Shown: positions 6,281 through 26,622 of the stretch, piece by piece
How positions within the stretch are numbered: the first letter of the stretch is position 1
Layout: every line of letters starts with the position of its first letter
Assembly: GCA_021739805.1 (NCBI GenBank)
Contig: JAIPBB010000020.1
Location: 1 to 29,689 of the forward strand
DNA: 29,689 nt
Source of the DNA: Saprospiraceae bacterium
GTDB lineage: Bacteria; Bacteroidota; Bacteroidia; Bacteroidales; JAIPBB01
Reading direction: 5' to 3'
The notes under the pieces: generated by a model
Seen by the model: the letters and a program-made list of their open reading frames with translations, nothing else
What the model was told of the DNA's origin: nothing
The model's database searches: none
Position numbers and translations under genes: made by a program

Positions 6281-6660
6281 ATGAAGATAGAGAAATTTGA
6301 GGATTTAGAGGTTTGGCAGGAAGCCAGGGAATTGCGTAAGTTTATTTTTAAAATTACTTCTGAGGAACGGTTTTCACAAGATTATATATTTAAAGATCAA
6401 ATACGAAGAGCAGGAGGATCGGTTATAGATAATATCGCGGAAGGATTTGGCAGGGGAGGCAATAAGGAATTCATAAATTTCTTATCTATTGAAAAGGCTC
6501 CAATGACGAAGTCCGTTCTCAATCATATTGAGCCCTTGATTTTAAATACATTTCAGAGGAAACACATAAAGACATTCTTGAGCAAACAGAAAAAATCTCA
6601 CGAAAAATAAGCTCATTTATACAATATCTTAAAACCCCAACCTTTAAAGGACCAAAGTTT
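6281..6660 (+). pseudogene. four-helix-bundle protein (S23/IVP-like), frameshifted
   Basis: The start is clean: MKIEKFEDLEVWQEARELRK, then RAGGSVIDNIAEGFGRGG and KEFINFLSI. After about 6500 the family sequence moves to another frame, where [30 protein letters not shown] and FIQYLKTPTFKGPKF can be read. One base is missing near 6499-6503 (GCN-TCC expected, GCTCC seen), and a CGA codon in the restored frame has become TGA (about 6531). The normal stop after GPKF is also lost. The unshifted frame ends at 6610 after 109 codons with an unrelated tail. Two or three independent lesions show long neglect. Confidence 0.85.
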
Positions 6661-12617: not shown

Positions 12618-13335
12618 AATAGCTTTTATTTCAGATATACATGGCAACCTTCCTGCATTAGATGCAGTATTGGAGGATATTGCCAAGCGAGGGATTAGTA
12701 AAATATATTGTTTGGGTGATCTTGTTGGCTATTACTGTTTTTTTAATGAGGTTGTTGAGCGAATTAGTCAATTAAATATTCCTACAATAATGGGAAATCA
12801 TGATTATGCCTTTGTGAATAATAAAGGTATAATTAATTATTCAAAAACATGTACCAGAATTCTGAAATGGCAATTAGAACATTCTAATATAGATACTCAA
12901 GTATTTTTAAAAACATTACCTGTTAGCCTTGATTTTAAATTTGAGGGCAAATCAATATTTTGCGTTCATGCAGGACTTAATAATTTCTTAGACGAATATG
13001 TTTATGATATAACAGAAGAATATTTAAAAGCCCAAAACTTCGATAAAGATGTGCTTATTACAGGACACACTCATTTAATTTCTTATAAAACACTTTTTAG
13101 CGGGCAAACCTGGGTAAACACAGGCTCAGTAGGTCAACCGAGAGACCTTGATAATAGGGCTTCTTATTTAATAATTGACGAAAGTTTTAATGTTGACTTT
13201 GTTAGAATATCTTACGACTATATGAAAGTTGTTGATGCTATGAAGAAAAATGGTTTTGAAGATTACATATCTGACACATTGATTACGGGTAAAAAAATTG
13301 GATATCAAGATAAATTACTAAGCAAAAACAAATGA
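12610..13335 (+). CDS. calcineurin-like metallophosphoesterase (YfcE/MJ0936-like)
   Basis: All five metal-binding blocks of the fold are present in 241 aa: SDIHGN (Asp9, His11), GDLVG (Asp37), GNHD (Asn63, His64), VHAG (His120) and GHTH (His153, His155), then NTGSVGQPRD. It is a cytoplasmic, two-metal phosphoesterase. In this operon it could dephosphorylate a sugar phosphate or cleave a phosphodiester intermediate made by the adjacent ATP-grasp ligase. It is translationally coupled on both sides (8-nt overlap upstream, 4-nt downstream with the aminotransferase), which argues for a pathway role and not a housekeeping one. Confidence 0.83.
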   Translation: MNRIAFISDIHGNLPALDAVLEDIAKRGISKIYCLGDLVGYYCFFNEVVERISQLNIPTIMGNHDYAFVNNKGIINYSKTCTRILKWQLEHSNIDTQVFLKTLPVSLDFKFEGKSIFCVHAGLNNFLDEYVYDITEEYLKAQNFDKDVLITGHTHLISYKTLFSGQTWVNTGSVGQPRDLDNRASYLIIDESFNVDFVRISYDYMKVVDAMKKNGFEDYISDTLITGKKIGYQDKLLSKNK

Positions 13336-14477
13336 TTCCTTTTAACAAACCATATATCACAGGCAAAGAAGTCCATTACATCTACGATGCCGTTTCCACG
13401 GGCAAGATTTCCGGTAACGGGAAATATACCCAAATGTGTCAACACTATTTTGAAGATCGTTGGGGTTTCAAAAAAACATTGCTTACCACAAGTTGCACTG
13501 ATGCGCTAGAGATGTGCGCATTGCTTTTGGATATAAAACCCGGTGACGAAGTTATCATACCATCCTATACTTTTGTTAGTACTGCCCTGGCATTTGTAAG
13601 GCAAGGGGCAAAAATTATTTTTGCTGATAGCCGATCAGATCATCCGGGAATAGAAGAGGATAAAATAGAAGCGCTTATTACTTCTAAAACTAAAGCCATT
13701 GTTCCTGTTCATTATGCCGGTATTGCTTGCAACATGGATAAGATTATGGGCATTGCTAAAAAATACAAGCTATTTGTGGTAGAAGATGCGGCACAAGCCA
13801 TTGATAGTTACTATACAGGAAAAGATGGTGTAAAAAGAGCGCTTGGAACCATTGGACACCTATCAGCGTTTTCATTCCACGAAACCAAAAACATTCAATG
13901 CGGTGAGGGGGGTTTATTGGGGATAAATGATGATAGATTTGTTAAACGGGCTGAGATTATATGGGAGAAGGGAACAAATCGGGCAGAGTTTTTCAGAGGT
14001 GAAGTGAATAAATATGGATGGGTTGACACTGGTTCAAGTTTTCTTCCTTCCGAAATTACTGCAGCATTTCTATGGGCACAATTGGAAGAGTTGGATAAAA
14101 TTCAGAAAAAACGGAAAGAGATTTGGGCGAAATATTTTTATGGTATAAAGCCCTTGATCGAGAAAGGCATCATCTCCGGGGCAGTAATTCCTGAAAATGC
14201 CATGAACAATGCCCATATGTTTTATATTGTATTGTCAAATATTGAAACACGAAATGCTCTGGTAGATCACATGAAAAAAGCCGGGTTTCATACAGTCTTT
14301 CATTATCAAAGCCTGCATCAAAGTGAGTATTATAAAAATCAATATATGGGATTTGAACTCAACAATGCTGATAAATATACAGATTCCCTGCTAAGATTAC
14401 CTCTATTTTATGAGTTGGATGAAATTGAGATAAATGACTGTGTTTCTGCCATAAGTATGTTTTGCCTTAATAGATAG
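13332..14477 (+). CDS. dTDP-4-keto-6-deoxy-hexose 4-aminotransferase (WecE/RffA-like)
   Basis: The 381-aa protein is a DegT/DnrJ/EryC1-family PLP enzyme of full length. The start MIPFNKPYITGKE and the PLP-lysine context SFHETKNIQCGEGG (Lys186) are typical of the WecE subgroup; GDEVIIPSYTFVSTA and VEDAAQAID are also in place. WecE converts dTDP-4-keto-6-deoxyglucose to dTDP-4-amino-4,6-dideoxygalactose with glutamate as amino donor. A WecD-like acyltransferase is encoded at 8034. The dTDP-glucose genes (rmlA, rmlB) that make its substrate are not in the window. The gene reads in a somewhat more GC-balanced codon style than its neighbours. It overlaps the previous gene by 4 nt (ATGA). Confidence 0.88.
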   Translation: MIPFNKPYITGKEVHYIYDAVSTGKISGNGKYTQMCQHYFEDRWGFKKTLLTTSCTDALEMCALLLDIKPGDEVIIPSYTFVSTALAFVRQGAKIIFADSRSDHPGIEEDKIEALITSKTKAIVPVHYAGIACNMDKIMGIAKKYKLFVVEDAAQAIDSYYTGKDGVKRALGTIGHLSAFSFHETKNIQCGEGGLLGINDDRFVKRAEIIWEKGTNRAEFFRGEVNKYGWVDTGSSFLPSEITAAFLWAQLEELDKIQKKRKEIWAKYFYGIKPLIEKGIISGAVIPENAMNNAHMFYIVLSNIETRNALVDHMKKAGFHTVFHYQSLHQSEYYKNQYMGFELNNADKYTDSLLRLPLFYELDEIEINDCVSAISMFCLNR

Positions 14478-14481
14478 ATAT

Positions 14482-15966
14482 ATGAACTACAACACCCTAG
14501 AAAAAATTTCACAAAATTTTGAAAAGGAGGGAGATAAAGTGGCATTTCATATAAATGACAAAGATTATTTATACAAAGATCTCTCCCAATTAGTAAGCGA
14601 TTATCAAGCTATTTTAAAGAAAATTGAAAGTAATTCCATTGGCGTTCTTGTTTCTAATTCCATAGAATGTTATGCTATACAGTTAGCAATATGGCTGACA
14701 GGTAAAACCTTTATCCCTTTAAATCCAAAGAACCCAATAATTCGCAATCAAAAAATTTTAGAGGAGGCATCCATTATAGTTTTATTTCATAATTATCATC
14801 AAGGCATAGAAAATTATCGCGATGACTTACTAAATATCATTAACCTCTCAGAAATTGAATCTGTTGCTGATAGTTTTCCCTCAATAATAAATGTAAAAGA
14901 GGATACAATTGCTTATATTCTATTTACATCAGGAAGTACCGGTGTCCCAAAAGGAGTTGCCATTAATTGGCGGAATATTAACTCTTTTGTTGATTCATTT
15001 CTAAGTTATGACTTTCTGTATTTAGAAGAAGAGCGATTTTTACAAATGTTTGACTTTAGCTTTGATGTTAGTGTTGCATCCACAATTATTCCTTTGATTC
15101 TGGGATTTTCAATTTATACCGTTTCTGATACCGGAGTTAAGTTTACAGAAGTATATTCTATTCTTGAGGAGAAGGAAATCACTTTTGCCGCCCTTGTTCC
15201 TTCGACACTTTCATTCCTGAAGCCGTTTTTCGAAGAAATTAATCTGCCCCACTTAAGAAATTGTATTCTTACGGCTGAGGCTTCTGATAATGGGATAGTA
15301 AAGCAATGGAAAAAATGCATCCCCAATGCACGTATATTTAATTTTTATGGACCCACTGAAGCCACTATTTGGAGTACTGCTTTTGAGTGGGAGAAATGGG
15401 ATAACATAAAGGATTATCATGGCATGCCACCCATTGGGAAACCACTTAAGAATGTTAATGCTATAATAATAGATAAAAGTGAGAATATTCTTGGGGCGAA
15501 TATAAAAGGAGAGCTTTGTTTGAGTGGTGATCATGTTACTTTGGGTTACTCAAATGACAATGATAAAAATATAACTAGTTTTATTTATATAGAGGGGATT
15601 AGATATTACAAAACAGGTGATATTTGCTTTTTTGATTTAGATGGCGACATAATGTATTGTGGCAGACTGGATCATCAAGTGCAATTAAGAGGGTATCGGG
15701 TTGAACTTAATGAAATAGAATTTATAATCAAAAAACAATTTAAAGTTAACAATGTAATTGCAATTCCCCACAAAAAGGAGGATGGTGCGACGAGTGTAAT
15801 TTTATTTATTGAGGGCTATAGTGGGGGCTCCCATGAGCCCATGGAATATTTAAAGACGGTTTTGCCAGATTATATGCTACCAAAAAAAATTATTATGCTT
15901 GAAAAATTTCCCATAAATAATAGCGATAAAGTTGATCGAAAGAAATTACAGGAATTAATTACCTAA
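14482..15966 (+). CDS. DltA-like adenylation enzyme (carrier-protein ligase)
   Basis: The 494-aa enzyme is a stand-alone ANL adenylation domain the size of DltA. Core motifs: TSGSTGVPKG (149-158), a FSFDVSVAS block with the Asp that in DltA and NRPS A-domains contacts the substrate amino group, FYGPTEATIW (Tyr289-Glu293), YKTGD, GRLDHQVQLRGYRVE (394-408) and the catalytic lysine in NNSDKVDRKKL (Lys483). It should activate an acid as acyl-AMP and load it on the carrier encoded at 16439. The conserved Asp favours an amino acid, but the thioesterase next door suggests a hydroxy or fatty acid is also possible. It starts 4 nt after the aminotransferase and is the first gene of acylation module A. 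Confidence 0.85.
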   Translation: MNYNTLEKISQNFEKEGDKVAFHINDKDYLYKDLSQLVSDYQAILKKIESNSIGVLVSNSIECYAIQLAIWLTGKTFIPLNPKNPIIRNQKILEEASIIVLFHNYHQGIENYRDDLLNIINLSEIESVADSFPSIINVKEDTIAYILFTSGSTGVPKGVAINWRNINSFVDSFLSYDFLYLEEERFLQMFDFSFDVSVASTIIPLILGFSIYTVSDTGVKFTEVYSILEEKEITFAALVPSTLSFLKPFFEEINLPHLRNCILTAEASDNGIVKQWKKCIPNARIFNFYGPTEATIWSTAFEWEKWDNIKDYHGMPPIGKPLKNVNAIIIDKSENILGANIKGELCLSGDHVTLGYSNDNDKNITSFIYIEGIRYYKTGDICFFDLDGDIMYCGRLDHQVQLRGYRVELNEIEFIIKKQFKVNNVIAIPHKKEDGATSVILFIEGYSGGSHEPMEYLKTVLPDYMLPKKIIMLEKFPINNSDKVDRKKLQELIT

Positions 15967-16004
15967 ATTATTTATAGATAAGAATTTTATTCTAATAAAA
16001 TTAT

Positions 16005-16427
16005 ATGGAGGTTTTAAAGGATTTCAAAATTAAGATTAGCGTTGAGGTTTCATGGGGGGATATGGATGCCATGAAACATTTAAACAATGTCGTTTATCTA
16101 AAATATTTTGAGGATTCCAGAATAGCATACTATGATGCAATAGGACTTGGACATGCTATGGATGATATGACCTTAATAGGAATTGTGAAATCAATTAGTT
16201 GCGAATATCTCATACCTATAAGCTTTCCTGATATGGTTGAAGTTGGGGCGAAAGTCATTTCTTTATCAGATATGGCTTTTACATTAGAGCATTATGTGCT
16301 TTCCAAAACGAAGGGAATTTGTGCTTATGGAGAAACTGAAGTAGCCATAGTTGATTCTTTATCCTTAAAGCCAGCCAAAATTCCGCAAAATATTATTCAC
16401 GCAATAAGGGAAATAGATACATTTTAA
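16005..16427 (+). CDS. hotdog-fold acyl thioesterase (YbgC/4HBT-like)
   Basis: The 140-aa protein has the 4HBT/YbgC signature WGDMDAMKHLNNVVYLKYFEDSR near the N-terminus, with the usual Asp in the W-G-D-M-D stretch and the N-x-x-Y-L-x-Y-F-E helix, and full family length. Such enzymes cleave acyl thioesters of CoA or carrier proteins. Its place between the adenylation enzyme and the carrier protein suggests either release of a free acid from CoA for the adenylation enzyme, or clearing of wrongly loaded carrier. Classical dlt operons have no thioesterase. A 38-nt gap precedes it and an 11-nt gap follows. Confidence 0.83.
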   Translation: MEVLKDFKIKISVEVSWGDMDAMKHLNNVVYLKYFEDSRIAYYDAIGLGHAMDDMTLIGIVKSISCEYLIPISFPDMVEVGAKVISLSDMAFTLEHYVLSKTKGICAYGETEVAIVDSLSLKPAKIPQNIIHAIREIDTF

Positions 16428-16438
16428 TTAGTTATTAT

Positions 16439-16681
16439 ATGGAATTAAATGAAATATTATCCGATCTTAATTCTCTCTATCAAAGGGTTTTAGAGAATGA
16501 AAAGGTGGTTTTAGAATTTGAAACCACAGCAAATGATGTAGATGGTTGGGATTCTTTGAACCACATGATTTTAATTACAGAAATTGAAAAACAATTCAAA
16601 ATAAAATTTGCCCTTAAAGAAATTATGAGGCTTAAAAATATTGGAGATGTATGTTTTTTAATTAAAAACAAATTGGTTTAA
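16439..16681 (+). CDS. carrier protein A (DltC/ACP-like)
   Basis: This 80-aa acidic helical protein has the phosphopantetheine site DSLNHM with Ser39. By position it carries the acyl group loaded by the adenylation enzyme at 14482 and presents it to the MBOAT at 16688, as DltC does for DltB. It is clearly paralogous to the carrier at 22599: same length, same Ser39, similar flanks (ANDVDGWDSLNHM against [13 protein letters not shown]). A phosphopantetheinyl transferase is not encoded here, so a general one must modify it. Confidence 0.88.
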   Translation: MELNEILSDLNSLYQRVLENEKVVLEFETTANDVDGWDSLNHMILITEIEKQFKIKFALKEIMRLKNIGDVCFLIKNKLV

Positions 16682-16687
16682 GAAAAA

Positions 16688-18130
16688 ATGATCTTCAATT
16701 CATTTGAGTTTCTTCTTTTTTATTGTGTAGTGTTTTTGCTATACTATTTCATTAATCCAAAATTGCAATGGGGCTTGTTGATTTTAGCCAGTTCGTTTTT
16801 TATAATGTACTATATGCCGACTTTTATATTGGTCGTGGTAGTAGTAATCTTTTTTAATTTTTTTACAGGAATCCAAATAGATAAAGCAAAGACAGACCTA
16901 TTAAAGAAAACGATATTTACAATAAGTACAGTAGTAAATATTTCAGTACTCGTCTTTTATAAATATATTAATTTCATTATTGAAAATCTTAATTTTCTGA
17001 CCAGCAACGCAGATTTGGATATAAGCCTACCTTACCTTTCCATATTGCTCCCACTAGGAATTTCTTTTTATGTGTTTCAGGTTATTAGCTATAATTACGA
17101 CATTTATTGGGAAATTGAGAAGCCTGAACGTCATATCGGGCATTTTGCCACGTATCTACTATTTTTTCCAAAATTTATCTCAGGACCGATTGAAAGAGCG
17201 AATTTATTTCTTCCACAAATTAAAGTACCTAAGAAATTTGAGGTAAATAATGTCGTATCAGGGCTCCAGCTCATCTTATGGGGGCTTTTTAAAAAGTTAG
17301 TTATTGCGGACAGAATTGCCACTACAACTAATTTAGTATTTAATGATGTTGGTAATTATCATGGACTCTCTATTATAATTGCCACTGTATTGTATACAAT
17401 TCAATTATATGCTGATTTTTCGGGTTATACCGATATAGCTTTGGGGTTAGCAAGAACGCTAGGTTACAAATTAACGGATAATTTTAATCGACCATTCTCG
17501 GCCACTTCAATATCTGATTTTTGGCGCAGGTGGCATATTACGCTTTCTTCCTGGGTTATAGATTATATTTATACTCCCGTATCGGCAGAAAGAAGAAGTT
17601 GGAATAGATTTGGTATTGTTTATGCTTTATTTATAACCTTTATTGTTCTTGGTGTATGGCATGGAGCATCATGGAATTTTGTGATTTATGGTGTTTTGCA
17701 TGCCCTTGCGGTAACATACGAATTTCTCACTAAAAAATTTAGAAGGAATTTGAGTGTGAAAATCCCATCATTAATTTATAATAGCCTGAGTAATTATTTA
17801 ACCATAGCATACTTTGCTTTTACGCTGATTTTTTTTAGAGTAGTTTCTTTAAGTGGTGCAATTACTGCAATTAGAAACATATTTACAGGTTTTTCTTTTA
17901 CTTCCAGCGGATTAGGTCTTGGTCTTTCTTTGAAAGATGTAATAATAATCAGCTTAGGTACCATAATTATTATTCAGCTTGAAAGGCTTAAAGCTCAGAA
18001 AGGGAGTTTCGGAATATTATTAGCATCAAAATCATCGCCAATTCGATGGACTTTTTATTATCTCGTAGTGCTAAGTATTATGATCTTTGGTTCTTTTGGC
18101 GCAAATAATTTTATATATTTTCAATTTTAA
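16688..18130 (+). CDS. MBOAT membrane acyltransferase A (AlgI/DltB-like)
   Basis: The 480-aa polytopic protein carries the MBOAT pattern: FFPKFISGPIERAN, LYADFSGYTDIALGLARTLGY, DFWRRWHITLSSW (His283) and GVWHGASWNF with the invariant catalytic histidine (His325). Local sequence is closer to the AlgI/PatA group than to DltB. AlgI and PatA use acetyl groups for O-acetylation of extracytoplasmic polysaccharide, while DltB takes D-alanine from DltC. The carrier protein 6 nt upstream points to a DltB-like donor. It should pass the acyl group across the inner membrane to the SGNH protein encoded next; the two overlap by one base (TAATG). Confidence 0.9.
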   Translation: MIFNSFEFLLFYCVVFLLYYFINPKLQWGLLILASSFFIMYYMPTFILVVVVVIFFNFFTGIQIDKAKTDLLKKTIFTISTVVNISVLVFYKYINFIIENLNFLTSNADLDISLPYLSILLPLGISFYVFQVISYNYDIYWEIEKPERHIGHFATYLLFFPKFISGPIERANLFLPQIKVPKKFEVNNVVSGLQLILWGLFKKLVIADRIATTTNLVFNDVGNYHGLSIIIATVLYTIQLYADFSGYTDIALGLARTLGYKLTDNFNRPFSATSISDFWRRWHITLSSWVIDYIYTPVSAERRSWNRFGIVYALFITFIVLGVWHGASWNFVIYGVLHALAVTYEFLTKKFRRNLSVKIPSLIYNSLSNYLTIAYFAFTLIFFRVVSLSGAITAIRNIFTGFSFTSSGLGLGLSLKDVIIISLGTIIIIQLERLKAQKGSFGILLASKSSPIRWTFYYLVVLSIMIFGSFGANNFIYFQF

Positions 18131-19203
18131 TGAAGCCTTTTTTAAAAAAAATAGGCTTTTTTTCTTTGTTCCCCATCCTTCTGATGCTTAGTATCAATTA
18201 TATATACGATCCGGCAAATTTATTTGACCCCGATTATAAGTATGAAAGATCCGTTGCAAATTATTTGAATGAGGGATGGAATGTTACCAATGTTGGAAAT
18301 ATGGATGAGAGAATTTTTCAAAAATATTTTATTGAAGGAATGAAACAATCTCCCGATGTCGTAATAATGGGCTCCAGCAATTCCATGTATATCGATTCAA
18401 GTTTCTATCCTAATCAAAAGTTAATCAATAATGCCGTTTCCTCAGCCACCTTCATTGATTTTATGGCAATTTACGAATTATACGAGAGGAAAGGATTTAA
18501 ACCAAAGAAAGTAGTAATAGGAATAGACCCATATATGTTAGTTTACTCGAAAAATGAATTTTGGAAATCATACCAGGAGAATTACATATCAATGAGACTC
18601 AAAATGGATTCAACACTTTTAGTTGAAGTTTTTAATTATTCCAATAGTTCGACTTATAAATGGAAGGAATTATTTTCGCTTAGTTATTTTCAATCATCGA
18701 TCAAGCTAATAAATAATTCGAATAATATTTTACCCGTTAAAAAGCAGTTTAATGAGGCCCCCACAAAAGTTTGCGATGGCTCTTTCAATGCAGTAGCTAG
18801 CTATAAAGACAAAACAAAATCTCAAATAGAGCTAGGTGTCATGCGATATATTGGAGGGGTTAAAAGTGTTTTTAATGAATCACAGAAGATTGATTCAGAA
18901 AACAGACAACATTTTGAATTATTTGTTCAATATTTATTAGATAATGATGTGGGCGTTGAATTTTATTTTATTCCCTACCATCCTTTATACTATAATTATA
19001 TTGTAGAGAAATATTTGGTAATAAGGGAAATTGAGGACTACCTAGCACAATATGCAAAAAACCAAGGTATTAGAGTAACAGGAAGTCTTAACCCAACGAG
19101 CTGTGGTTTGACAAGTGAAGATTTCACAGATTATAGTCATATTAATTTAGAAGGATTTAACAAATTGTTTTTACTTCAAGAAGATACTGAAGAGGTTAAA
19201 TAA
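18130..19203 (+). CDS. DltD-like SGNH acyltransferase, module A
   Basis: The 357-aa protein has one N-terminal membrane anchor (about 7-27) and an extracytoplasmic SGNH-like domain: VIMGSSNSM (Gly81, Ser82, Ser83), very like the GSSE block of DltD, and a late DYSHINLEG with Asp334 and His337 as the remaining catalytic pair. DltD and AlgJ/AlgX/PatB proteins of this fold complete acyl transfer to the cell-surface polymer after an MBOAT has moved the acyl group. Ser83 is the likely nucleophile by alignment to DltD. It is coupled to the MBOAT by a one-base overlap and closes module A. It shares only fold-level features with the second SGNH protein at 25678. Confidence 0.8.
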   Translation: MKPFLKKIGFFSLFPILLMLSINYIYDPANLFDPDYKYERSVANYLNEGWNVTNVGNMDERIFQKYFIEGMKQSPDVVIMGSSNSMYIDSSFYPNQKLINNAVSSATFIDFMAIYELYERKGFKPKKVVIGIDPYMLVYSKNEFWKSYQENYISMRLKMDSTLLVEVFNYSNSSTYKWKELFSLSYFQSSIKLINNSNNILPVKKQFNEAPTKVCDGSFNAVASYKDKTKSQIELGVMRYIGGVKSVFNESQKIDSENRQHFELFVQYLLDNDVGVEFYFIPYHPLYYNYIVEKYLVIREIEDYLAQYAKNQGIRVTGSLNPTSCGLTSEDFTDYSHINLEGFNKLFLLQEDTEEVK

Positions 19204-19236
19204 ACAATTGATTGTCATTAAAATGAACGTGTATAT

Positions 19237-20868
19237 ATGAGGGTGGTTAATTTTTTAGGAAAATATTTTAATAATGAGAAAAATAGCAATTTCTCATTAT
19301 TAATATTTGCGCTCTTGTATTTTTTAGTGATAGGATTAATATATGGGTTTACATATGAATCTAATGATGACTCTGTATTTGAAAATATGCTTAGAGGTCT
19401 GTATTGGGATACCCCTATATCTAATTTCTATTTTTTTCATAGAGGCATTTCACATTTTTTTATTTTTTTATATCAACATTTAGATCTTGGAATTAATTGG
19501 TATGGCTTAGTTCTGATTTTTCTTAATTTCCTTTCCTTCTACATTCTTTTATTAGTCATTAAAAAAGAGACCAATAATTATTTCATAATCGTTCTCTTTT
19601 TCCTAATTTTCTTCCAAAATGTCTATTTAGTTTCATTTACTCGGGTTTCAATTTTTCTTGCAGTTTCAGGTTTATTATTATTCAATGATTTGTACAGAAG
19701 TAAGAAAAGTAAATTTTTATATGCAATTCCCATTCTGATTTTTTTAGTAGCATATTGCCTTCGACCAAATGCGGCAATTTTGGGGGCGATTCTTATAATT
19801 CCATATCAACTGATTACCAATCACAAGAAAAAGTTATTATTATCATTAAGCTATATAATCCTCATTGTTTTGTCGTCAATTATGGTAAATACGATAATCA
19901 AAAATGTTCAAGACCCTGATTATACTAAACAAATATCAGAAGCATCAAAAATATTTCTTCCTATTGTGGATTATGATTACAACCCAAAAGGCGTTGATGT
20001 TGAGGGCCTTGAGAACATTGTTTTTGAACTGGAAAATGTGTTTTATTTTGATATAAGGACAACTAGCATTGAGAACATCAAAAGGCTTAGAAATGATTCG
20101 CTCTTAATATCTCAAGATGTAATAATAAAAAAATTGGTGAAACTGGGAAAAATGATTTTTCATAAGCCGTTTTTTGTGTTTTGTATTCTTTTATGCATCG
20201 GGCTAGCTTTTTATGAAAAGAAATATATCTATCCAGTTTTCTTTGGAATAGTTTATTTCTTAGGAGTCTTATTTGCTTTAACGGTATTGAAGAAAATGGA
20301 GTATAGGCTTTTAATTCCAATTATGACAATAATGCTTGTTTTTTTACTAATTGTATTAAGGGATTCTATAAAAAATTTTATTTCCAAAAATGCACTTTTT
20401 TATAAAGTAGTTGTATTCACAATTATTTTTATTTTTTTATTTCAATCGAAATTATACTATGATAGTATAAGTCAATTAAATGATCAACAATTAAATAGTT
20501 TTGCTTTGACTAGAGAGGATTTACCTGATAAGAAAATATTTTTACTTTCCGATCCTTTTCTAAACTTTAACCCACTAAAGCACCAGACAAATATTAGTAA
20601 GGCTTTATTAATTCCAATTATCGGATGGAGTGCATATAATGAAGCATCCTATAATTTTCAATTAAGGGAGTTTGGAACAAACGATATTTGCGATATATTT
20701 AAGTCAATAAGCGCTTCTAAGGATTTTTTATTTTTAGGGACAGCTCCAGAGATTATTAAGCTGAATAAGATATTAAATATGAACGGAATTGACAGAGGAT
20801 TCACAATGGAGCAACAATTAGATGAAGGTGTAACTTTCCTATATAGTTTTAAAATGAATCAAGAATAG
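19237..20868 (+). CDS. polytopic GT-C-like membrane protein 1
   Basis: The 543-aa protein has about ten to eleven hydrophobic segments between residues 20 and 410 and a soluble C-terminal part of about 130 residues. Right after the first helix comes YESNDDSVFENMLRG, with acidic residues Asp44 and Asp45 in the first external loop, where GT-C enzymes keep their catalytic acids. I propose a periplasmic transferase that takes sugar from an undecaprenyl-phosphate donor, matching the two synthases upstream. The protein at 27053 has the same plan (YAEGDD after helix 1). A Wzy-type polymerase is the main alternative. It starts 33 nt after module A and ends 1 nt before the FkbH-like gene. Confidence 0.6.
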   Translation: MRVVNFLGKYFNNEKNSNFSLLIFALLYFLVIGLIYGFTYESNDDSVFENMLRGLYWDTPISNFYFFHRGISHFFIFLYQHLDLGINWYGLVLIFLNFLSFYILLLVIKKETNNYFIIVLFFLIFFQNVYLVSFTRVSIFLAVSGLLLFNDLYRSKKSKFLYAIPILIFLVAYCLRPNAAILGAILIIPYQLITNHKKKLLLSLSYIILIVLSSIMVNTIIKNVQDPDYTKQISEASKIFLPIVDYDYNPKGVDVEGLENIVFELENVFYFDIRTTSIENIKRLRNDSLLISQDVIIKKLVKLGKMIFHKPFFVFCILLCIGLAFYEKKYIYPVFFGIVYFLGVLFALTVLKKMEYRLLIPIMTIMLVFLLIVLRDSIKNFISKNALFYKVVVFTIIFIFLFQSKLYYDSISQLNDQQLNSFALTREDLPDKKIFLLSDPFLNFNPLKHQTNISKALLIPIIGWSAYNEASYNFQLREFGTNDICDIFKSISASKDFLFLGTAPEIIKLNKILNMNGIDRGFTMEQQLDEGVTFLYSFKMNQE

Positions 20869-20869
20869 T

Positions 20870-22606
20870 ATGAAGAATTATTCACAGCTTAAAAAAAATT
20901 TAAAAAAAGATTTTTCAGGTTTAAGAATCGTCAGAATTGCGTTGCTGGGAGATACTGCAACCCAGTTCTTAACACAGGCTTTAAGAGGCTTGGGATATGA
21001 CTGTGGTTTTAATCTCGAAATATGGGAAGCCGATTTTAATCAAATAGAAAGACAAGTTTATGATCTCTCTTCTGAATTGTATGAATTTAACCCTGAATTG
21101 GTAATTGTTTTTCAATCGTCACACAAGCTCCTAGGGAAATACAATAAAATTAAGCCGGAACAACATATATTATTTGCTTCACATGAATTAGAAACAATAG
21201 AAAATATTTATTCCAATTTAACCAACAATCTCAATGCGAAAGTAATTTTTTATAATTATAATGAGATTGATGATTCCATTTTTGGGAATTATGCCAATAA
21301 AACCGAGTCCTCTTTTTTGTATCAATTGAGAAAACTTAATTATGAGTTAATGGCATTGGCATCAAAAAAAACAAATTTATATTTGTGTGAACTTTCCACA
21401 ATTCAGAACCAAGTTGGCAAATCCAATTTTTTTCAAACATCAATTTATATTAATACAGAAATGGTATTGAGTATTGATGTAATACCCAAGGTTGCTAATA
21501 GGACAATGGATTTGATCAACACCCTATATGGTAAGTTTAAAAAATGTATAATTCTGGATTTAGATAACACAACTTGGGGTGGAATTATAGGTGATGATGG
21601 GATTGAAAATATTCAAATAGGAAGTTTGGGAATTGGCAAGGCTTTTTCAGAGTTTCAATATTGGATAAAGAAGTTAAAAAATAGAGGGATAATAGTGGCG
21701 GTTTGTAGTAAGAATACAGAGTCTGTTGCCAAAGAGCCATTCGAGAAACATCCTGATATGGTATTACATTTAGAAGACATTTCTGTATTTATGGCCAATT
21801 GGGAAAACAAAGCAGACAACATCCACCAAATACAAAATATCCTAAATATTGGTTTTGATTCGATGGTGTTTTTAGATGACAATCCTTTTGAAAGAAATAT
21901 GGTTAGAGAAAATATTCCTCAAATTTGTGTTCCAGAACTTCCGGAAGATCCTGCAGATTATTTAGAATATTTATATAGCTTGAATCTTTTTGAAACAATT
22001 TCATTTTCAAATGAAGATACTGAAAGAACAAAACTATATCAAATAGAAGCGCAAAGAACTGCTATTCAACGAAAATTTGCTAATGAAGATGATTTTTTAA
22101 TGAGTTTGAACATGTGTTCATTAATTGAACCTTTTAATAAATTCAATTCACCAAGAGTTGCGCAACTATCCCAACGTTCAAATCAATTCAACCTCAGAAC
22201 TGTGCGCTATACGGATTCTGAAATTGAAAAACTGAGTATTGATAAAGATTTTTTCACATTTACATTTACTTTAGAGGATAAATTTGGAGATAATGGATTG
22301 ATATGTGTGTTAATATTAAAAAAAGAAAATAGTAAAATATTGTTTATTGACACTTGGTTTATGAGCTGCAGAGTTTTGAAACGCGGGATGGAAAATTTTG
22401 TACTAAATACCCTGGTTAATTATGCCAAAGGAGAAGGATTTACGATTTTAAAAGGCGAATATATTCCTACTGTAAAGAACGAAATGGTAAAAAATCATTA
22501 TCTTAATTTAGGTTTTGAGAAACAAGACGAGAACTGGATTCTTAATGTAGGAACCTACACACCAAAAAATAATTATATTAAAATTAAGAAGCAAAATAAT
22601 GAATAA
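20870..22606 (+). CDS. FkbH-like HAD-IIIC enzyme
   Basis: The 578-aa protein matches full-length FkbH-type proteins: an N-terminal α/β domain (about 1-215, [17 protein letters not shown]), a HAD phosphatase core with [18 protein letters not shown] (Asp230, Asp232) and [10 protein letters not shown], and a GNAT-like C-terminal part (about 400-560; [28 protein letters not shown]). FkbH-family enzymes take 1,3-bisphosphoglycerate, remove the phosphate and load a glyceryl group on a carrier protein. The carrier is encoded next, with an 8-nt overlap. So module B starts from a glycolytic intermediate and not from an acyl-AMP. Glyceryl loading is family knowledge, not shown here. Confidence 0.88.
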
Positions 22607-22841
22607 AGAAGAATTAATAATACAAATCAACGATATATTTATAGATATACTTGATAACGAAGAAATTATTATTGAGGAAACAACCTCGGCCAATGATATA
22701 GAAGAGTGGGATTCATTGACCCACATTCAACTAGTGGTGGCAATTGAAAAGCATTTTAAAATACGTTTTACTTCCAGCGAGATTCAAAGCTGGACTAATG
22801 TCGGCACCATGCTGGTTTCTATTCAAGACAAAATAAAATGA
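22599..22841 (+). CDS. carrier protein B (ACP-like)
   Basis: The 80-aa acidic protein has the phosphopantetheine site EWDSLTHI with Ser39. It overlaps the FkbH-like gene upstream by 8 nt and the MaoC-like gene downstream by 4 nt, so it should be the carrier on which the glyceryl group is loaded and then altered. It is a paralogue of carrier A at 16439, yet the two have diverged in the helix II region that talks to partner enzymes (NHMILITEIEKQF against [13 protein letters not shown]). That fits separate partners and little cross-talk. Confidence 0.88.
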
Positions 22842-23236
22842 TTTTAAAGTTAGGCGATATATTTGAAGAGCATTTCATTATGTCAAATGAAACTTATGAA
22901 GGATTTGTTAATGTTTTCAAAGATAAAAACCCTTTACATACTAATCATCAATTTGCAATTGAAAAAGGGTTTAAAGGACGAGTAATGCATGGAAATATTT
23001 TAAATGGTTTTTTGTCTTATTTTATCGGTGAAAAATTACCTGTTAGGGAGGTAATTATTCATTCGCAAGAAATCCAATTTAAAAACGCAGTTTATTTAGA
23101 TGATGAATTGCAATTCAAAGCTGAAATAGTTGGAGTCTTTGAATCGGTAAACGCAATAGAGTTTAAGTTTAGTTTTAAAAATTTGGAAAAAAAAGTAGTG
23201 GCAAAAGGTTTAATACAAATAGGATTTTTAAAATGA
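22838..23236 (+). CDS. MaoC-like (R)-specific hydratase/dehydratase
   Basis: The 132-aa hotdog protein has the hydratase-2 motif [20 protein letters not shown] followed by RVMHG, with Asp29 and His34 as the catalytic pair. The family adds water to, or removes it from, enoyl thioesters. Together with the next gene (an SDR) it could dehydrate and reduce a carrier-bound 3-hydroxyacyl group, turning a glyceryl unit or an extended chain into another short acyl group. It is coupled on both sides by ATGA overlaps. A non-catalytic double-bond-binding role cannot be excluded, but the catalytic pair is intact. Confidence 0.85.
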
Positions 23237-23955
23237 ATATATTAATCACAGGAGGGGCTTCGGGTTTGGGTAAAGCTATTTCAATAATTCTTGCAAAAAA
23301 TGCAGAAAATACGATATATTTTACTTACTCAAATTCAGAACTAAATGCAAAGAAAATAGAATTAGATTTTAAGAATGCTTTTTCTATTAGGTGTGATTTT
23401 AGGGATCCAAATTCTATAAAATCTTTAAGGGATAAAATAAGCCAATTGGATATTGATGTTTTGATAAATAACGCTTATTTAGGAAATCCAATAAATAACT
23501 ATTTCCATAAAATAAGTGAAGATGATTTTTCTTCCAAATTTTTGATAAATGTTATGCCAACAATTCAAATAACCCAATCTGCGATTAGCTATTTTAGAAA
23601 GAAGAAAAAAGGGAAAATAATTACAATTTTAACTTCATTTTTACTTAATACTCCCCCTATAGGAGCATCTGGATATGTGGCAAATAAAGCCTATTTAGCA
23701 TCTCTTGTTAAATCATGGGCAAATGAAAATTCGAAATTTAATATAACATCTAATTCTGTTTCCCCATCATTTATGCAGACGAACTTCACTTCAGAAGTCG
23801 ACGAAAGAATTATTGAACAGATGATATCAGATCATCCTTTAAAGAAACTTCTGACAGTAGAGGAAGTTGCTGAAACGGTATTTTTTTTAACAAATGCTTC
23901 TTCACAAATTAACGGGGTTGACATAATTTTAAACTCGGGAACTAATATTAAATAA
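23233..23955 (+). CDS. short-chain dehydrogenase/reductase (FabG-like)
   Basis: The 240-aa SDR has TGGASGLGKA (cofactor loop), LINNAYLG, a catalytic Ser135 in ITILTSF, and the YVANK motif (Tyr148, Lys152). It is of classical SDR length and probably uses NADPH or NADH on a β-keto or hydroxy group of the carrier-bound acyl unit. It overlaps the MaoC-like gene by 4 nt and closes the soluble part of module B. The sequence then runs into a decayed MBOAT fragment, not directly into the intact MBOAT. Confidence 0.87.
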   Translation: MNILITGGASGLGKAISIILAKNAENTIYFTYSNSELNAKKIELDFKNAFSIRCDFRDPNSIKSLRDKISQLDIDVLINNAYLGNPINNYFHKISEDDFSSKFLINVMPTIQITQSAISYFRKKKKGKIITILTSFLLNTPPIGASGYVANKAYLASLVKSWANENSKFNITSNSVSPSFMQTNFTSEVDERIIEQMISDHPLKKLLTVEEVAETVFFLTNASSQINGVDIILNSGTNIK

Positions 23956-23989
23956 ACTGATTGATTAGGGCTAGCTGAAAACTACAAGA

Positions 23990-24202
23990 TACGGAGTAGT
24001 ATTTTTCAATTACCCTTCATGTCTCCTAACCCTCATTACAGGCCTTATTGACAGAGCAAATTTATTTATTCCTCAATTGAAAAAAGAAATCGCGATTGAT
24101 TACAATCCAGATATAGTTGGAATTGATCAGATTTTATGGAGACGATTTAGAAAAAGTTTTTTTCCATATAATTGTGCAACAATTATTAACAATGCTTATT
24201 GA
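23990..24202 (+). pseudogene. fragment of an MBOAT gene
   Basis: In the frame ending at the TGA at 24200-24202 one reads a degraded but recognisable MBOAT piece. LITGLIDRANLFIPQLKKE corresponds to FISGPIERANLFLPQIKVP of MBOAT A and LLSGPIERAHNFIPQLYKK of MBOAT B. ILWRRFRKSFF...CATIINNAY corresponds to ILWGLFKKLVIADRIA...NLVFND. About 70 codons remain. There is no start, and the regions with both active-site histidines are missing. It lies directly between the SDR and the intact MBOAT. It probably marks an earlier MBOAT replaced by the present one. Its RANLFIPQ wording is slightly nearer to MBOAT A. Confidence 0.8.
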
Positions 24203-24211
24203 GAATCCTTT

Positions 24212-25669
24212 ATGTTATTTAATTCTAAAGCATTCCTTCTTTTCTTTATATTAGTATTTGTTTTATACTATTTATTCTCGCATAAGTACCGATGGTTATT
24301 ACTATTGATATCAAGTTGTTTATTTTACATGTATTCCGTACCGGGAAATATTACAGTCCCCTTATTCATAATAATAACAGCATATTTAGGAGGGGTAAAT
24401 ATTGAAAAAACATTTACAAAAGATAAAAAAAGGTTATTTTTAATAATTAGCTTACTACTAATTCTCGGAGCACTTGTTTTTTTTAAATATGCTAATTTTT
24501 TGACGACCACGGGGGTCGGCATTTTTTATTTTCTTTCAAACGCCACCAATATCAAATTAATCCCAAATACCAATCCCATTTTATTAAATATTATAGCACC
24601 CATAGGAATTTCTTATATTTCTTTCCAGGCAATAGGCTACCTTATTGAAATATATAGAGGTAATCACCCTCCTGAAAAGAATATTGGAATATTTGCATCC
24701 TACGTGATGTTTTTCCCAAAGTTATTATCTGGGCCTATTGAGAGAGCGCACAATTTTATTCCTCAGCTATATAAGAAACATGAGTTTGAATACCAACAGA
24801 CTGTTGATGGTCTAAAACTAGTTGCGTGGGGATTTTTCAAGAAGCTTGTTATTGCAGATAGGATTGCAATCCTAACAGATCAGGTATTTAATAATGTGCA
24901 ACAATATACCGGGATTCCCCTCATCATTGCAGTTTTATTATTTACAGTTCAATTGTATGCTGATTTTTCAGGATATACAGATATTGCGTTGGGCATTGCC
25001 CAGACACTTGGATTTAAATTAATGAATAATTTTAATATCCCATTTGTTGCCAAATCAACAAAGGAATTATGGAGACGATGGCATATCTCGCTATCAACAT
25101 GGTTCAATGATTATGTTTTTAATACTATCGTTATTAATAGAAGAGACTGGAATAAATGGGCCATCGTATATGCAACTATTGTAACATTTTTAATACTTGG
25201 CTTGTGGCACGGTTCAAGCTGGAATTTTGTGATATTCGGTTTTGTACAAGGGCTTATTCTATCACTGGAGTTTCTGACTATGAAAATCAGAAAGAGACTA
25301 AGATCTAAAATCCCAGTCTTTCTTAACAATTCCTTCGGAATCATTTTCACCTTTTTCTTTTTTAGTTTTGCATTGATTTTTTTCAGGGCAAACAATTTTA
25401 GTGATGCCATTTATACAATATCGCATTTGTTTGATATACAATTTGGTTTTAATGAAAATCTTGGAATTGAAGGTAGGGATATATACTTAATTCCGGTCTT
25501 GGTTTTCTTTTTATTCTTTATTCAATTCCTTCAAATAAAAGGCAGTATAATAACACGGCTTTCAAGGAAACCAGTTTATTTTAGATGGATGCTATATTGC
25601 ACTTTATTACTATCTATTTTGTTCTTTGGTCTATTTAGTAAATCATCCTACATTTATTTGCAATTCTAA
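24212..25669 (+). CDS. MBOAT membrane acyltransferase B (AlgI/DltB-like)
   Basis: The 485-aa polytopic protein is a paralogue of MBOAT A, with FFPKLLSGPIERAHNF, LYADFSGYTDIALGIAQTLGF, LWRRWHISLSTW (His291) and GLWHGSSWNFVIFG with catalytic His333. It should carry the acyl group of carrier B over the inner membrane to the SGNH-like protein encoded 8 nt further on. It starts 9 nt after the stop of an older MBOAT fragment, so it may have come in by gene replacement. Donor and acceptor are unknown; carrier B is inferred only from gene order. Confidence 0.9.
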   Translation: MLFNSKAFLLFFILVFVLYYLFSHKYRWLLLLISSCLFYMYSVPGNITVPLFIIITAYLGGVNIEKTFTKDKKRLFLIISLLLILGALVFFKYANFLTTTGVGIFYFLSNATNIKLIPNTNPILLNIIAPIGISYISFQAIGYLIEIYRGNHPPEKNIGIFASYVMFFPKLLSGPIERAHNFIPQLYKKHEFEYQQTVDGLKLVAWGFFKKLVIADRIAILTDQVFNNVQQYTGIPLIIAVLLFTVQLYADFSGYTDIALGIAQTLGFKLMNNFNIPFVAKSTKELWRRWHISLSTWFNDYVFNTIVINRRDWNKWAIVYATIVTFLILGLWHGSSWNFVIFGFVQGLILSLEFLTMKIRKRLRSKIPVFLNNSFGIIFTFFFFSFALIFFRANNFSDAIYTISHLFDIQFGFNENLGIEGRDIYLIPVLVFFLFFIQFLQIKGSIITRLSRKPVYFRWMLYCTLLLSILFFGLFSKSSYIYLQF

Positions 25670-25677
25670 TTAGATTT

Positions 25678-26622
25678 ATGAAGCGTTTTATTTCAAATTT
25701 AATTTTATTGATTGCAATTACGTCGATTAGTTACATCTTTATTTACCAAATATTTTACAAAGTTACAATACCCAAAAACATTAATGCCTGTTATATTTGG
25801 GGGGATTCTCAAATGGTTCAGGATTTAGACTTAGACTATCTTAATAACAATAGCCCCTATCATTTCTATTCATCTGCACAACATGGAGCCGGAATTTACG
25901 ATTTCTTAGTTTTTACTGAATTAGTGCCGGAAAATTCAAATGTCATTATTTCTATTGGGAAAGGCGTTTTTGTGAGAGGGAAAAACATGGATAGAAATGA
26001 GTCAGCAATAAATATTAAGGTATTATTAAAATTATGGGATAATAATTATACTATAAAAGAAATATATGGCATAATCAGGAAAAACCAACAACCAATGATT
26101 TTTTTCCACAAGAAAAGTGCATACCCGCTTTTCCCTAATGAGGATGCTACCAAAAAAATAGAAACGGTTGCTAATTTGGAAAAATTATATGCTCAAAAAC
26201 TACCTTATTTTAGTAGCCTGGAAAATCTATATATCGATGGTATAAGAGGCCTGCTCAATAAGAATTGTAAAATAATTGCAATCGAATTCCCATTTCATCC
26301 AATTGCAAATGAAATTGAGCTTAAATCGCCCTATAATGAAGCATTCATTTCCTTTGAAAAGAAAATATCAGAATTATTTGAGAAAAAAGAAATAATAGAA
26401 ATTAAATCTAAGGAAAACATATTTAGGGAAACACCTTATAATGCAAAAGGGAATAGACAGTTGAGCATAGGATTAATTGAAATTAAATCAGATGATAATA
26501 TTTTTAGGGATTTAACTCACTTTAACAAAAGGGGAGCAATGTGTTTTACAAAAAATATATTACCATTTATTGATTTTAAAGATGAATCCTTGATAATAAA
26601 AGTCAAGCAAATAGAGGAATGA
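25678..26622 (+). CDS. SGNH-like acyltransferase, module B, with a duplicated C-terminal block
   Basis: The 314-aa protein has an N-terminal anchor (about 4-26) and then YIWGDSQMVQDLDL with a GDS block (Ser44 as nucleophile). The Asp-x-x-His pair comes late, in FRDLTHFNKRG (Asp278, His281). It is thus the likely AlgJ/DltD-like partner of MBOAT B. Residues 240-261 (IEIKSKENIFRETPYNAKGN...) and 267-288 (IEIKSDDNIFRDLTHFNKRG...) are a tandem duplication 27 residues apart. The first copy has Glu251 and Tyr254 where the second has the catalytic Asp and His, so only the second can be active. I rest the SGNH call on motifs and neighbours; overall sequence similarity to known members is low. Confidence 0.65.
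   Translation: MKRFISNLILLIAITSISYIFIYQIFYKVTIPKNINACYIWGDSQMVQDLDLDYLNNNSPYHFYSSAQHGAGIYDFLVFTELVPENSNVIISIGKGVFVRGKNMDRNESAINIKVLLKLWDNNYTIKEIYGIIRKNQQPMIFFHKKSAYPLFPNEDATKKIETVANLEKLYAQKLPYFSSLENLYIDGIRGLLNKNCKIIAIEFPFHPIANEIELKSPYNEAFISFEKKISELFEKKEIIEIKSKENIFRETPYNAKGNRQLSIGLIEIKSDDNIFRDLTHFNKRGAMCFTKNILPFIDFKDESLIIKVKQIEE

What the first reader, a model, noticed from the sequence alone, without database searches (positions are those of the whole stretch)
14482..26622. Two complete Dlt-like acylation modules side by side, with different activation chemistry
Seen: adenylation enzyme, carrier, MBOAT, SGNH (14482-19203), and FkbH-like enzyme, carrier, MaoC, SDR, MBOAT, SGNH (20870-26622). 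The carriers are paralogous (both 80 aa, Ser39), the MBOATs are paralogous, and each MBOAT is followed by a membrane-anchored protein with a Ser block and an Asp-x-x-His block. Known: DltA/DltC/DltB/DltD move D-alanine across the membrane onto teichoic acid, and AlgI/AlgJ-type pairs acetylate polysaccharide. Inferred: a Gram-negative polysaccharide receives two different carrier-borne acyl groups in the periplasm. Joining AlgI-like MBOATs to dedicated carriers, one loaded from ATP/acid and one from a glycolytic intermediate, would be an unusual system.
Basis: partly seen in the sequence, partly recalled or inferred. Interest (0 to 1): 0.85.

Follow-up and report, generated by a model that had tools for sequence, protein, structure and literature searches.

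The report
Two carrier-fed surface-sugar acylation modules
This stretch of a Bacteroidota-type genome holds two neighbouring gene sets that each appear to load a small acid onto its own carrier protein and pass it through the inner membrane onto a surface sugar, working much like the Dlt system of Gram-positive bacteria but with different loading enzymes.

Summary
The untested claim that the carriers feed the MBOATs is well supported. (i) 32 of 43 relatives of carrier 1 in 395 Bacteroidota genomes have an MBOAT downstream, 30 within 500 bp; 43 of 59 close FkbH relatives have one nearby. (ii) On a 94-row MBOAT tree carrier linkage needs 4 changes, 23-38 in 500 shuffles; both window MBOATs sit in one carrier-linked clade. 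(iii) Carrier-linked MBOATs lack a Gly-Gly loop that the others have (58 of 60 against 6 of 65); by alignment it is where DltB docks DltC, and DltBs lack it too. (iv) DltD ranks first for both SGNH models. (v) A degraded MBOAT of another carrier-linked clade lies before MBOAT2, so the MBOAT was swapped. Cargo is inferred: an amino acid; glyceryl turned into lactyl. Against: few independent switches (3 to 0, p 0.25); 9 of 14 FkbH genes in the random draw have no MBOAT nearby; module 1's ligase is not beside an MBOAT elsewhere. New variant of the Dlt/MBOAT-SGNH kind.

The parts
14482..15966 (+). Module 1 activating enzyme: stand-alone amino-acid-adenylation-type enzyme (DltA-like, below the DltA cut-off)
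   Evidence: PF00501 175 bits; TIGR01733 287 bits (cut-off 317), TIGR01734 DltA 272 (cut-off 560); the FDxSV aspartate aligns with the adenylation domains of LgrA (its role in binding the alpha-amino group is recalled)
16005..16427 (+).
   Evidence: PF13279 80 bits; role inferred
16439..16681 (+). Carrier protein 1 (80 aa, Ser39)
   Evidence: PF00550 above cut-off; 32 of 43 relatives have an MBOAT downstream
16688..18130 (+). MBOAT1, carrier-type transmembrane acyltransferase, C-terminal FIYFQF shuttle peptide
   Evidence: PF03062 91 bits; carrier-linked clade, support 100/99; no GG[SN] loop
18130..19203 (+). SGNH1, membrane-anchored DltD-like transferase
19237..20868 (+). 543-aa multi-pass membrane protein between the modules, function unknown; weakly similar to 27053-28666
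   Evidence: no Pfam hit; BLASTP 1e-5 to 27053-28666
20870..22606 (+). Module 2 activating enzyme: FkbH-type HAD-IIIC protein, expected to load glyceryl from 1,3-bisphosphoglycerate
   Evidence: TIGR01686 295 bits (cut-off 147); FkbH_N 250 bits; DLDNT kept in at least 95% of 56 relatives
22599..22841 (+). Carrier protein 2 (80 aa, Ser39), overlaps the FkbH gene
   Evidence: PF00550 24.2 bits; a carrier is among the three genes after FkbH in 54 of 59 loci, plus one fusion (L055)
22838..23236 (+). MaoC-like hot-dog dehydratase, proposed to dehydrate glyceryl-carrier
   Evidence: PF01575 42.6 bits; D-x-N-P-L-H kept in at least 90% of 23 relatives
23233..23955 (+). SDR reductase (FabG-like), proposed to make lactyl-carrier
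   Evidence: PF13561 114 bits; YxxxK kept in at least 90% of 21 relatives
23957..24211 (+). Degraded internal fragment of a former cassette MBOAT
   Evidence: tblastn 5e-18, best to MBOATs of the other FkbH clade (L003, L013); 0 hits in 20 shuffles
24212..25669 (+). MBOAT2, carrier-type; C-terminal YIYLQF; His333 aligns with DltB His336
   Evidence: PF03062 76 bits; clade and loop; DltB alignment
25678..26622 (+). SGNH2, membrane-anchored DltD-like transferase

Best explanation
Two Dlt-like but non-Dlt relays work side by side on an envelope polysaccharide of a Gram-negative (Bacteroidota-type) cell. Module 1: an adenylation enzyme loads an amino acid (side chain not predictable) onto carrier 1, a 4HBT thioesterase may edit wrong loads, MBOAT1 takes the acyl group from the carrier's phosphopantetheine arm to its own C-terminal tyrosine on the periplasmic side, and SGNH1 passes it to the sugar. 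Module 2: FkbH loads D-glyceryl from 1,3-bisphosphoglycerate onto carrier 2; MaoC removes the beta-hydroxyl as water, giving 2-hydroxyacrylyl (the enol of pyruvyl); the SDR reduces it to lactyl; MBOAT2 and SGNH2 move it outside. Shown here: gene content and order, recurrence, clade membership, loop type, SGNH fold. Inferred: every catalytic step, the acyl identities (lactyl about 0.4, unmodified glyceryl or another small acyl otherwise), the acceptor, and strict pairing of each carrier with its own MBOAT.
For: Operon: genes on one strand, mostly overlapping or under 40 bp apart, inside a polysaccharide cluster. Adjacency: 30 of 43 carrier-1 relatives within 500 bp upstream of an MBOAT and 2 more through MaoC-SDR; 43 of 59 close FkbH relatives. 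Tree: 4 changes against 23-38 in 500 shuffles, still 4 with the loop cut out. Paired control: in L024, L035, L047, L055, L187 and L188 the carrier-side MBOAT is in a carrier-linked clade and the other MBOAT of the locus is not. Loop: 58 of 60 scored carrier-linked MBOATs lack GG[SN], 59 of 65 others have it; the three DltBs read lack it; the Gly-Gly columns align with DltB Val305/Ile306, residues reported to touch DltC. L187 independently shows two carrier-MBOAT-SGNH sets side by side. DltD first in fold comparison. Tailoring swap at one chromosomal site, L005 against L028. MBOAT remnant.
Against: Loop and carrier linkage change together in only about 3 independent pairs (0 the other way), sign test p 0.25; on the 128-row tree about 2, p 0.5. 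With a looser carrier label the tree needs 7 changes, not 4, and carrier-linked L103 and L110 lie outside the two FkbH clades. The loop pattern was found on the same rows on which it was then counted. Sixteen of 59 FkbH loci lack a same-strand MBOAT: four are cut within 1.3 kb, two have an MBOAT on the other strand (L030, L032), three have KAS III, one AT3, one an HGSNAT-like protein, five nothing I identified. In the 395-genome draw 14 genomes have FkbH at E <= 1e-80; 5 of the 14 have an MBOAT in the stretch read and 9 do not. The module 1 ligase has relatives at E <= 1e-60 in 6 of 395 genomes, none with an MBOAT in the stretch read. Two carrier-side MBOATs keep the GG loop and six non-GG MBOATs have no carrier by the rule used. 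MBOAT2's shuttle peptide starts with Tyr, not Phe. No chemistry was measured.
Confidence: 0.7

Rival explanations
1. The carriers serve cytoplasmic transferases (for instance N-acylation of an amino sugar before export) and the MBOAT-SGNH pairs are ordinary acetyl-CoA O-acetyltransferases that happen to lie beside them.
For: FkbH-carrier pairs occur without an MBOAT, with KAS III (L007, L045, L056) or hexapeptide proteins (L190, L191) nearby, and in 9 of 14 cases of the random draw; the window has a DegT aminotransferase and a GNAT upstream; the module 1 ligase is not beside MBOATs elsewhere.
Against: Carrier-linked clades and missing GG loop; loci with both kinds of MBOAT split accordingly; in Flavobacterium L005 the six genes stand alone between housekeeping-type neighbours, with no sugar cluster seen in the stretch; the window's GNAT ends almost 6 kb before module 1, and none of the 30 window proteins scanned matched KAS III.
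Confidence: 0.15
2. Carrier feeding is right, but the module 2 acyl is not lactyl: glyceryl is passed on unmodified, or MaoC and SDR make another small acid, or they run in the opposite direction.
For: Thirteen MBOAT rows have FkbH and carrier but no MaoC/SDR, methyltransferase or VOC gene before them, so glyceryl alone may be a cargo; in methoxymalonyl pathways glyceryl-ACP is oxidised instead (PMC7489565 passages).
Against: MaoC directly follows the carrier in 23 loci and SDR follows it in 21 of them; with dehydratase and reductase residues kept the shortest route from glyceryl-ACP is 2-hydroxyacrylyl/pyruvyl, then lactyl.
Confidence: 0.5
3. The two modules are not separate channels: either carrier can feed either MBOAT, and the pair gives graded mixtures.
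For: The carriers are 38% and the MBOATs 45% identical and the MBOATs lie in one clade; the module 2 MBOAT seems to have been exchanged for one of the same clade as MBOAT1.
Against: The SGNH proteins are unrelated in sequence, which points to different acceptors or cargoes; L187 also keeps two carriers with two MBOAT-SGNH pairs.
Confidence: 0.2

Closest known systems
Dlt pathway (DltA/DltC/DltB/DltX/DltD), D-alanylation of teichoic acid
   Same: Loader, dedicated carrier, MBOAT, SGNH-fold transferase; no GG loop in the DltBs read
   Different: Scores far below the DltA and DltB equivalog cut-offs; shuttle peptide fused to the MBOAT instead of a DltX protein; module 2 is loaded by FkbH, not by an adenylation enzyme; cluster looks Gram-negative (export and chain-length genes)
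PatA/PatB, AlgI/AlgJ and WssH/WssI type MBOAT-SGNH O-acetylation
   Same: MBOAT with C-terminal acyl-shuttle peptide plus separate membrane-anchored SGNH protein (PMC12148441, passages)
   Different: Those are held to use acyl-CoA and to lack a carrier; here each pair has a carrier and the MBOAT lacks the GG[SN] loop
AerO/AerP/AerQ (A domain, PCP, MBOAT) of varlaxin, and FkbH-OMT-PCP loading modules of suomilide and varlaxin
   Same: Proposed adenylation-carrier-MBOAT set; FkbH loads glycerate on a carrier where it is methylated (PMC10143770 and PMC13122637, passages)
   Different: Cyanobacterial peptide pathways; the passages mention no SGNH partner and no polymer, and the MBOAT is not said to take the FkbH cargo
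FkbH glyceryl-ACP systems of polyketide and tetronate pathways
   Same: FkbH plus stand-alone carrier, with tailoring enzymes acting on glyceryl-ACP (PMC7489565, passages)
   Different: Cargo goes to a transmembrane acyltransferase here, not to a polyketide synthase; tailoring is MaoC+SDR (in relatives methyltransferase and VOC protein)
BF1531 (PDB 3slr), uncharacterised FkbH-like protein
   Same: Only solved relative of the window FkbH found (E 4e-148)
   Different: Solved chain is 387 aa and its function is not assigned

Membership tests
Dlt system | DltA equivalog score (TIGR01734, cut-off 559.85) | tested here: not met
   272.3 bits
Dlt system | DltB equivalog score (TIGR04091, cut-off 375) | tested here: not met
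   159.2 and 169.3 bits
Dlt system | Carrier with Asp-Ser phosphopantetheine site | tested here: met
   Both PF00550 above cut-off, WDSL with Ser39
Dlt system | DltD by sequence family | tested here: not met
   No accepted Pfam or NCBIfam match for either SGNH protein
Dlt system | DltD-like fold | tested here: inconclusive
Dlt system | Carrier-type docking helix in the MBOAT | tested here: met
   By alignment: no GG[SN]; Val307/Ile308 of MBOAT2 align with DltB Val305/Ile306 (contacts from PMC11035591, passages)
Dlt system | D-alanine esters on teichoic acid | not testable with these tools
   needs chemistry
Bacterial MBOAT-SGNH acyltransferase pair | MBOAT family and catalytic His | tested here: met
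   PF03062 above cut-off in both; WHG present, His333 of MBOAT2 aligns with DltB His336
Bacterial MBOAT-SGNH acyltransferase pair | C-terminal FxYxxF shuttle peptide | tested here: met
   MBOAT1 exact; MBOAT2 has YxYxxF, so one residue off; 122 of 128 MBOAT rows end in FxYxxF
Bacterial MBOAT-SGNH acyltransferase pair | Separate SGNH partner with Ser and Asp-x-x-His blocks | tested here: met
Bacterial MBOAT-SGNH acyltransferase pair | Acyl-CoA as donor | not testable with these tools
   Predicted not to be the donor here, from carrier linkage and loop
FkbH glyceryl-carrier loader | FkbH domain score (TIGR01686, cut-off 146.65) and HAD DxDxT motif | tested here: met
   295.2 bits; DLDNT
[quoted passage not shown]
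   inferred from the family

The most novel reading that the evidence does not exclude
Carrier-fed MBOATs are not a Dlt speciality. A large class of carrier-fed MBOAT-SGNH transferases exists in Bacteroidota (and probably beyond), with at least three kinds of loader (FkbH, DltA-like, FAAL-like ligase) and exchangeable tailoring enzymes (MaoC+SDR, methyltransferase, VOC protein). It can be recognised by loss of the Gly-Gly-Ser/Asn loop, whose place is the carrier-docking helix of DltB, and some cells run two such channels at once.
Probability: 0.6. Interest if true: 0.85.

Novelty: new variant of a known kind. Interest (0 to 1): 0.72.

Why it matters
A 2023 MBOAT review states that all MBOATs except DltB use acyl-CoA (PMC10213974, passage), and the 2025 PatA/PatB paper that other MBOAT/SGNH pathways lack a carrier (PMC12148441, passage). 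If the reading is right, both need revision, and surface polysaccharides may carry esters (lactyl, glyceryl, methylated glyceryl, aminoacyl) that are easily overlooked in clusters annotated as O-acetylation. The loop gives a sequence rule to tell carrier-fed from CoA-fed enzymes, testable by swapping one loop, and the modular loaders are a possible toolbox for adding chosen acyl groups to glycans.

Tried and rejected
Organism: no genome is held for the window. FkbH relatives at 80-84% identity lie in Flavobacterium psychrotolerans, a Bacteroidetes MAG and a Paludibacter MAG; the window is taken as Bacteroidota from that.

Adenylation pocket: I read the specificity positions from the alignment with LgrA, numbering recalled; only the amino-group aspartate is firm and no amino acid can be named. 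The high total score to LgrA is the sum of two domains, so I dropped a glycine reading.

Second phylum: searches were meant to sample another phylum through L052 (titled Beijerinckiaceae), but the draw returned the same genomes as the Bacteroidota draw; one search adds only the centre genome and repeats the rest. No random sample of another phylum was obtained. Outside evidence is the plasmid set only: 136 records matched, 60 listed, 15 fetched, 13 analysed, 2 unannotated Subdoligranulum loci not.

Phylogenetic independence: the loop-carrier association is not significant by independent pairs (p 0.25 on 94 rows, 0.5 on 128).

Cargo from MBOAT lineage: the tailoring type changes 10 times among the FkbH rows of the 128-row tree, so the MBOAT lineage does not predict cargo.

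None of the five has an MBOAT, which made the random-draw count 5 of 14; of the two carrier hits, one has none and one (G012) has a distant MBOAT two genes on, not counted.

Literature: ten searches. Two natural-product papers hold both FkbH and MBOAT (passages read); none that I saw links FkbH to an MBOAT in a polysaccharide cluster. Subscription papers and preprints are not held, so this is not proof of absence. The bryostatin D-lactyl precedent is recalled; one search found nothing. Gram-negative Dlt loci (Bordetella, Dickeya) are recalled; the two papers listed were not read. The name FAAL-like is my own for ligases that matched PF00501 (one scanned).

Promoters and terminators near chance level; no tRNA, no Rfam match.
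Full report
What is there. The window is a polysaccharide cluster from a Bacteroidota-type genome: export protein 2373-3143, chain-length/tyrosine-kinase-like protein 3831-6221, glycosyltransferases, ATP-grasp enzymes, a DegT aminotransferase. The genes from 13332 to 26622 run on the + strand, mostly overlapping or under 40 bp apart, with one gap of 256 bp. Module 1 is adenylation enzyme, 4HBT thioesterase, carrier, MBOAT, SGNH-type protein; module 2 is FkbH, carrier, MaoC, SDR, MBOAT, SGNH-type protein. A 543-aa membrane protein separates them. The carriers are 38% identical, the MBOATs 45%, and the SGNH proteins are not detectably related.

Do the carriers belong to the MBOATs? (a) Neighbourhood. 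One scan of the genome collection with the FkbH protein, which finds close relatives only, gave 59 loci (some share an assembly, e.g. L013/L015/L025 and L001/L053). A carrier gene is among the next three genes in 54, and L055 has it fused. An MBOAT lies on the same strand within about seven genes in 43 of 59; of the 16 without, 4 end within 1.3 kb of FkbH (L039, L053, L054, L059). Twenty-three loci have MaoC directly after the carrier, 21 of these followed by SDR, and in 17 of the 21 an MBOAT follows directly; of the other four, two are cut, one has KAS III and one has the MBOAT upstream. Relatives of carrier 1 were sought in 395 Bacteroidota genomes: 43 hits in 39 genomes, 30 within 500 bp upstream of a listed MBOAT, 2 more through MaoC-SDR, 11 not; the 11 neighbourhoods were then read and one has a distant MBOAT further on. 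Fifteen of 129 MBOAT rows follow a ligase that I call FAAL-like and a carrier, a third loader.

(b) Tree. On 94 MBOATs (careful maximum likelihood; 46 carrier-linked, 48 not) the label needs 4 changes; 500 shuffles gave 23-38. Removing the loop described below leaves 4 (300 shuffles, minimum 25). With a looser label (carrier within four genes either way) it needs 7. Both window MBOATs sit in a 9-row clade (support 100/99) whose other seven members lie beside FkbH; L055, first labelled 'none' by the script, was relabelled because its carrier is fused to a methyltransferase. A second clade of 27 rows (100/100) is all carrier-linked. L103 and L110 are carrier-linked outside these; L103 groups with L010, L022 and L044, whose MBOAT stands upstream of FkbH. 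In six loci with more than one MBOAT (L024, L035, L047, L055, L187, L188) the carrier-side ones are in a carrier-linked clade and the remaining one is not. Rows were thinned from 128 to 94, partly at random, among the FAAL-type and unlinked rows; the 128-row quick tree gave 5 changes.

(c) A loop. Between the conserved R-W-H and the catalytic W-H-G, MBOATs without a carrier typically read Y-I-P-L-G-G-(S/N)-R, whereas carrier-linked ones have no Gly-Gly and mostly an Arg followed by Asp, Asn or Ser. Scored over 128 rows by 'carrier within four genes on the same strand, no MBOAT between': 58 without and 2 with GG among carrier-linked; 6 without and 59 with GG among the rest; 3 rows were missed by the pattern. 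Of the six, L030 and L032 lie in FkbH-carrier loci on the other strand and the two of L123 flank an adenylation enzyme; L125 and L142 are unexplained. By the earlier labels, 0 of 53 carrier-linked and 61 of 72 others had GG. The pattern was found on these same rows, so the plasmid records are the outside check: three DltBs lack GG, nine MBOATs with no annotated carrier in the stretch have it, and a Sinorhizobium MBOAT with a carrier two genes downstream lacks it. The DltB structure paper places DltC on Met302, Val305, Ile306, Met309, Lys312 and Arg317 of DltB (PMC11035591, passages); in the alignments Val305/Ile306 fall on the Gly-Gly columns and on Val307/Ile308 of MBOAT2. By alignment the region that differs is the carrier docking site. 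Limit: about 3 independent pairs to 0, p 0.25.

Modularity. In Flavobacterium L005 the genes FkbH-carrier-MaoC-SDR-MBOAT and a 313-aa protein stand between a 585-aa ABC-transporter-like protein and a 462-aa dihydrolipoyl-dehydrogenase-like protein; L028 has FkbH-methyltransferase-carrier-VOC-MBOAT and a 313-aa protein between the same two neighbours (neighbour names are my reading of their first residues). L006, L013 and L023 look like L005 by gene lengths. L055 has a methyltransferase-carrier fusion. L187 reads MBOAT(GG)-SGNH-carrier-MBOAT-SGNH-FkbH-carrier-MaoC-SDR-MBOAT-SGNH, the SGNH proteins judged by motif: two carrier-fed sets side by side in another genome. In the window itself the 256-bp gap after SDR holds about 80 codons of a degraded MBOAT (tblastn 5e-18) whose best relatives are MBOATs of the 27-row FkbH clade, where the cassette's MBOAT normally stands. 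The loader half was kept and the MBOAT replaced by one of another carrier-linked clade, most likely with its SGNH partner.

Chemistry. [quoted passage not shown] The window FkbH passes the FkbH cut-off. MaoC and SDR keep their catalytic residues. Glyceryl-ACP is a 3-hydroxyacyl thioester, so dehydration followed by keto-reduction gives lactyl; this is inference. The adenylation enzyme keeps the aspartate that binds the alpha-amino group (role recalled); which amino acid is open.

Against. FkbH-carrier pairs also sit near KAS III (L007, L045, L056), AT3 (L029), HGSNAT-like (L052) and hexapeptide (L190, L191) proteins, so FkbH does not imply an MBOAT. In the 395-genome draw 14 genomes have FkbH at E <= 1e-80; 5 (G003, G192, G276, G288, G402) have an MBOAT in the stretch read and 9 do not. 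The module 1 ligase is rare (6 of 395) and has no MBOAT in the stretches read; its link rests on the window operon, on the carrier-1 relatives and on MBOAT1's clade and loop.

Literature. The 2023 MBOAT review says that except DltB all MBOATs use acyl-CoA (PMC10213974, passage); the 2025 PatA/PatB paper says other MBOAT/SGNH pathways lack a carrier (PMC12148441, outline and passages). The aeruginosin review describes AerO (A domain), AerP (PCP) and AerQ (MBOAT) for one residue of varlaxin (PMC10143770, passage), so a carrier-fed MBOAT outside Dlt has been implied once in a peptide pathway; I saw none for a surface polysaccharide in the ten searches listed under Tried and rejected.

Verdict. 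It works like Dlt; it is not a member of Dlt by the curated scores. New variant of a known kind, with a testable sequence rule.

Noticed in passing
23957-24211: Degraded internal piece of an MBOAT of the other FkbH clade between SDR and MBOAT2: trace of an MBOAT swap inside the cassette.
   Followed up: yes
25678-26622, residues about 245-272 of SGNH2: An internal repeat just before the Asp-x-x-His block, shared only with homologue P0002 among the 29 aligned sequences; low-confidence stretch in the model.
   Followed up: partly
3489-3728 and 6281-6610: Two partial 23S-rRNA-intervening-sequence-family ORFs flank the chain-length gene; one matches only the second part (43-105 of 106) and the other only the first part (1-64) of the model.
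   Followed up: no
L151, L152, L153, L156, L194-L201, L203, L204, L206: A ligase (FAAL-like by my naming), carrier and MBOAT set recurs in Bacteroidota (15 rows), mostly without an SGNH-sized gene right after the MBOAT.
   Followed up: partly
L029:11969-13015 and L052:5002-6156: FkbH-carrier pairs followed by an AT3 or an HGSNAT-like membrane acyltransferase: other transmembrane transferase types may also be carrier-fed.
   Followed up: no
L237, L238 (Sinorhizobium meliloti plasmids): VOC protein, non-GG MBOAT, 409-aa protein and carrier in a row, no FkbH seen: a carrier-MBOAT set in a model alphaproteobacterium.
   Followed up: partly
L055:7091-8263: Methyltransferase fused to the carrier between FkbH and MBOAT.
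   Followed up: partly
L052 (genome G407): Record titled Beijerinckiaceae, yet its phylum draw returned the same genomes as the Bacteroidota draw; the title may be wrong.
   Followed up: no
L123 (MBOATs at 6681 and 10651): Two non-GG MBOATs flank an adenylation enzyme but no carrier gene was found in the stretch.
   Followed up: partly
L239, L241, L242, L243: More distant FkbH-carrier pairs without MBOAT, three of the four with a VOC-protein gene close by; their acyl acceptors are unknown.
   Followed up: no
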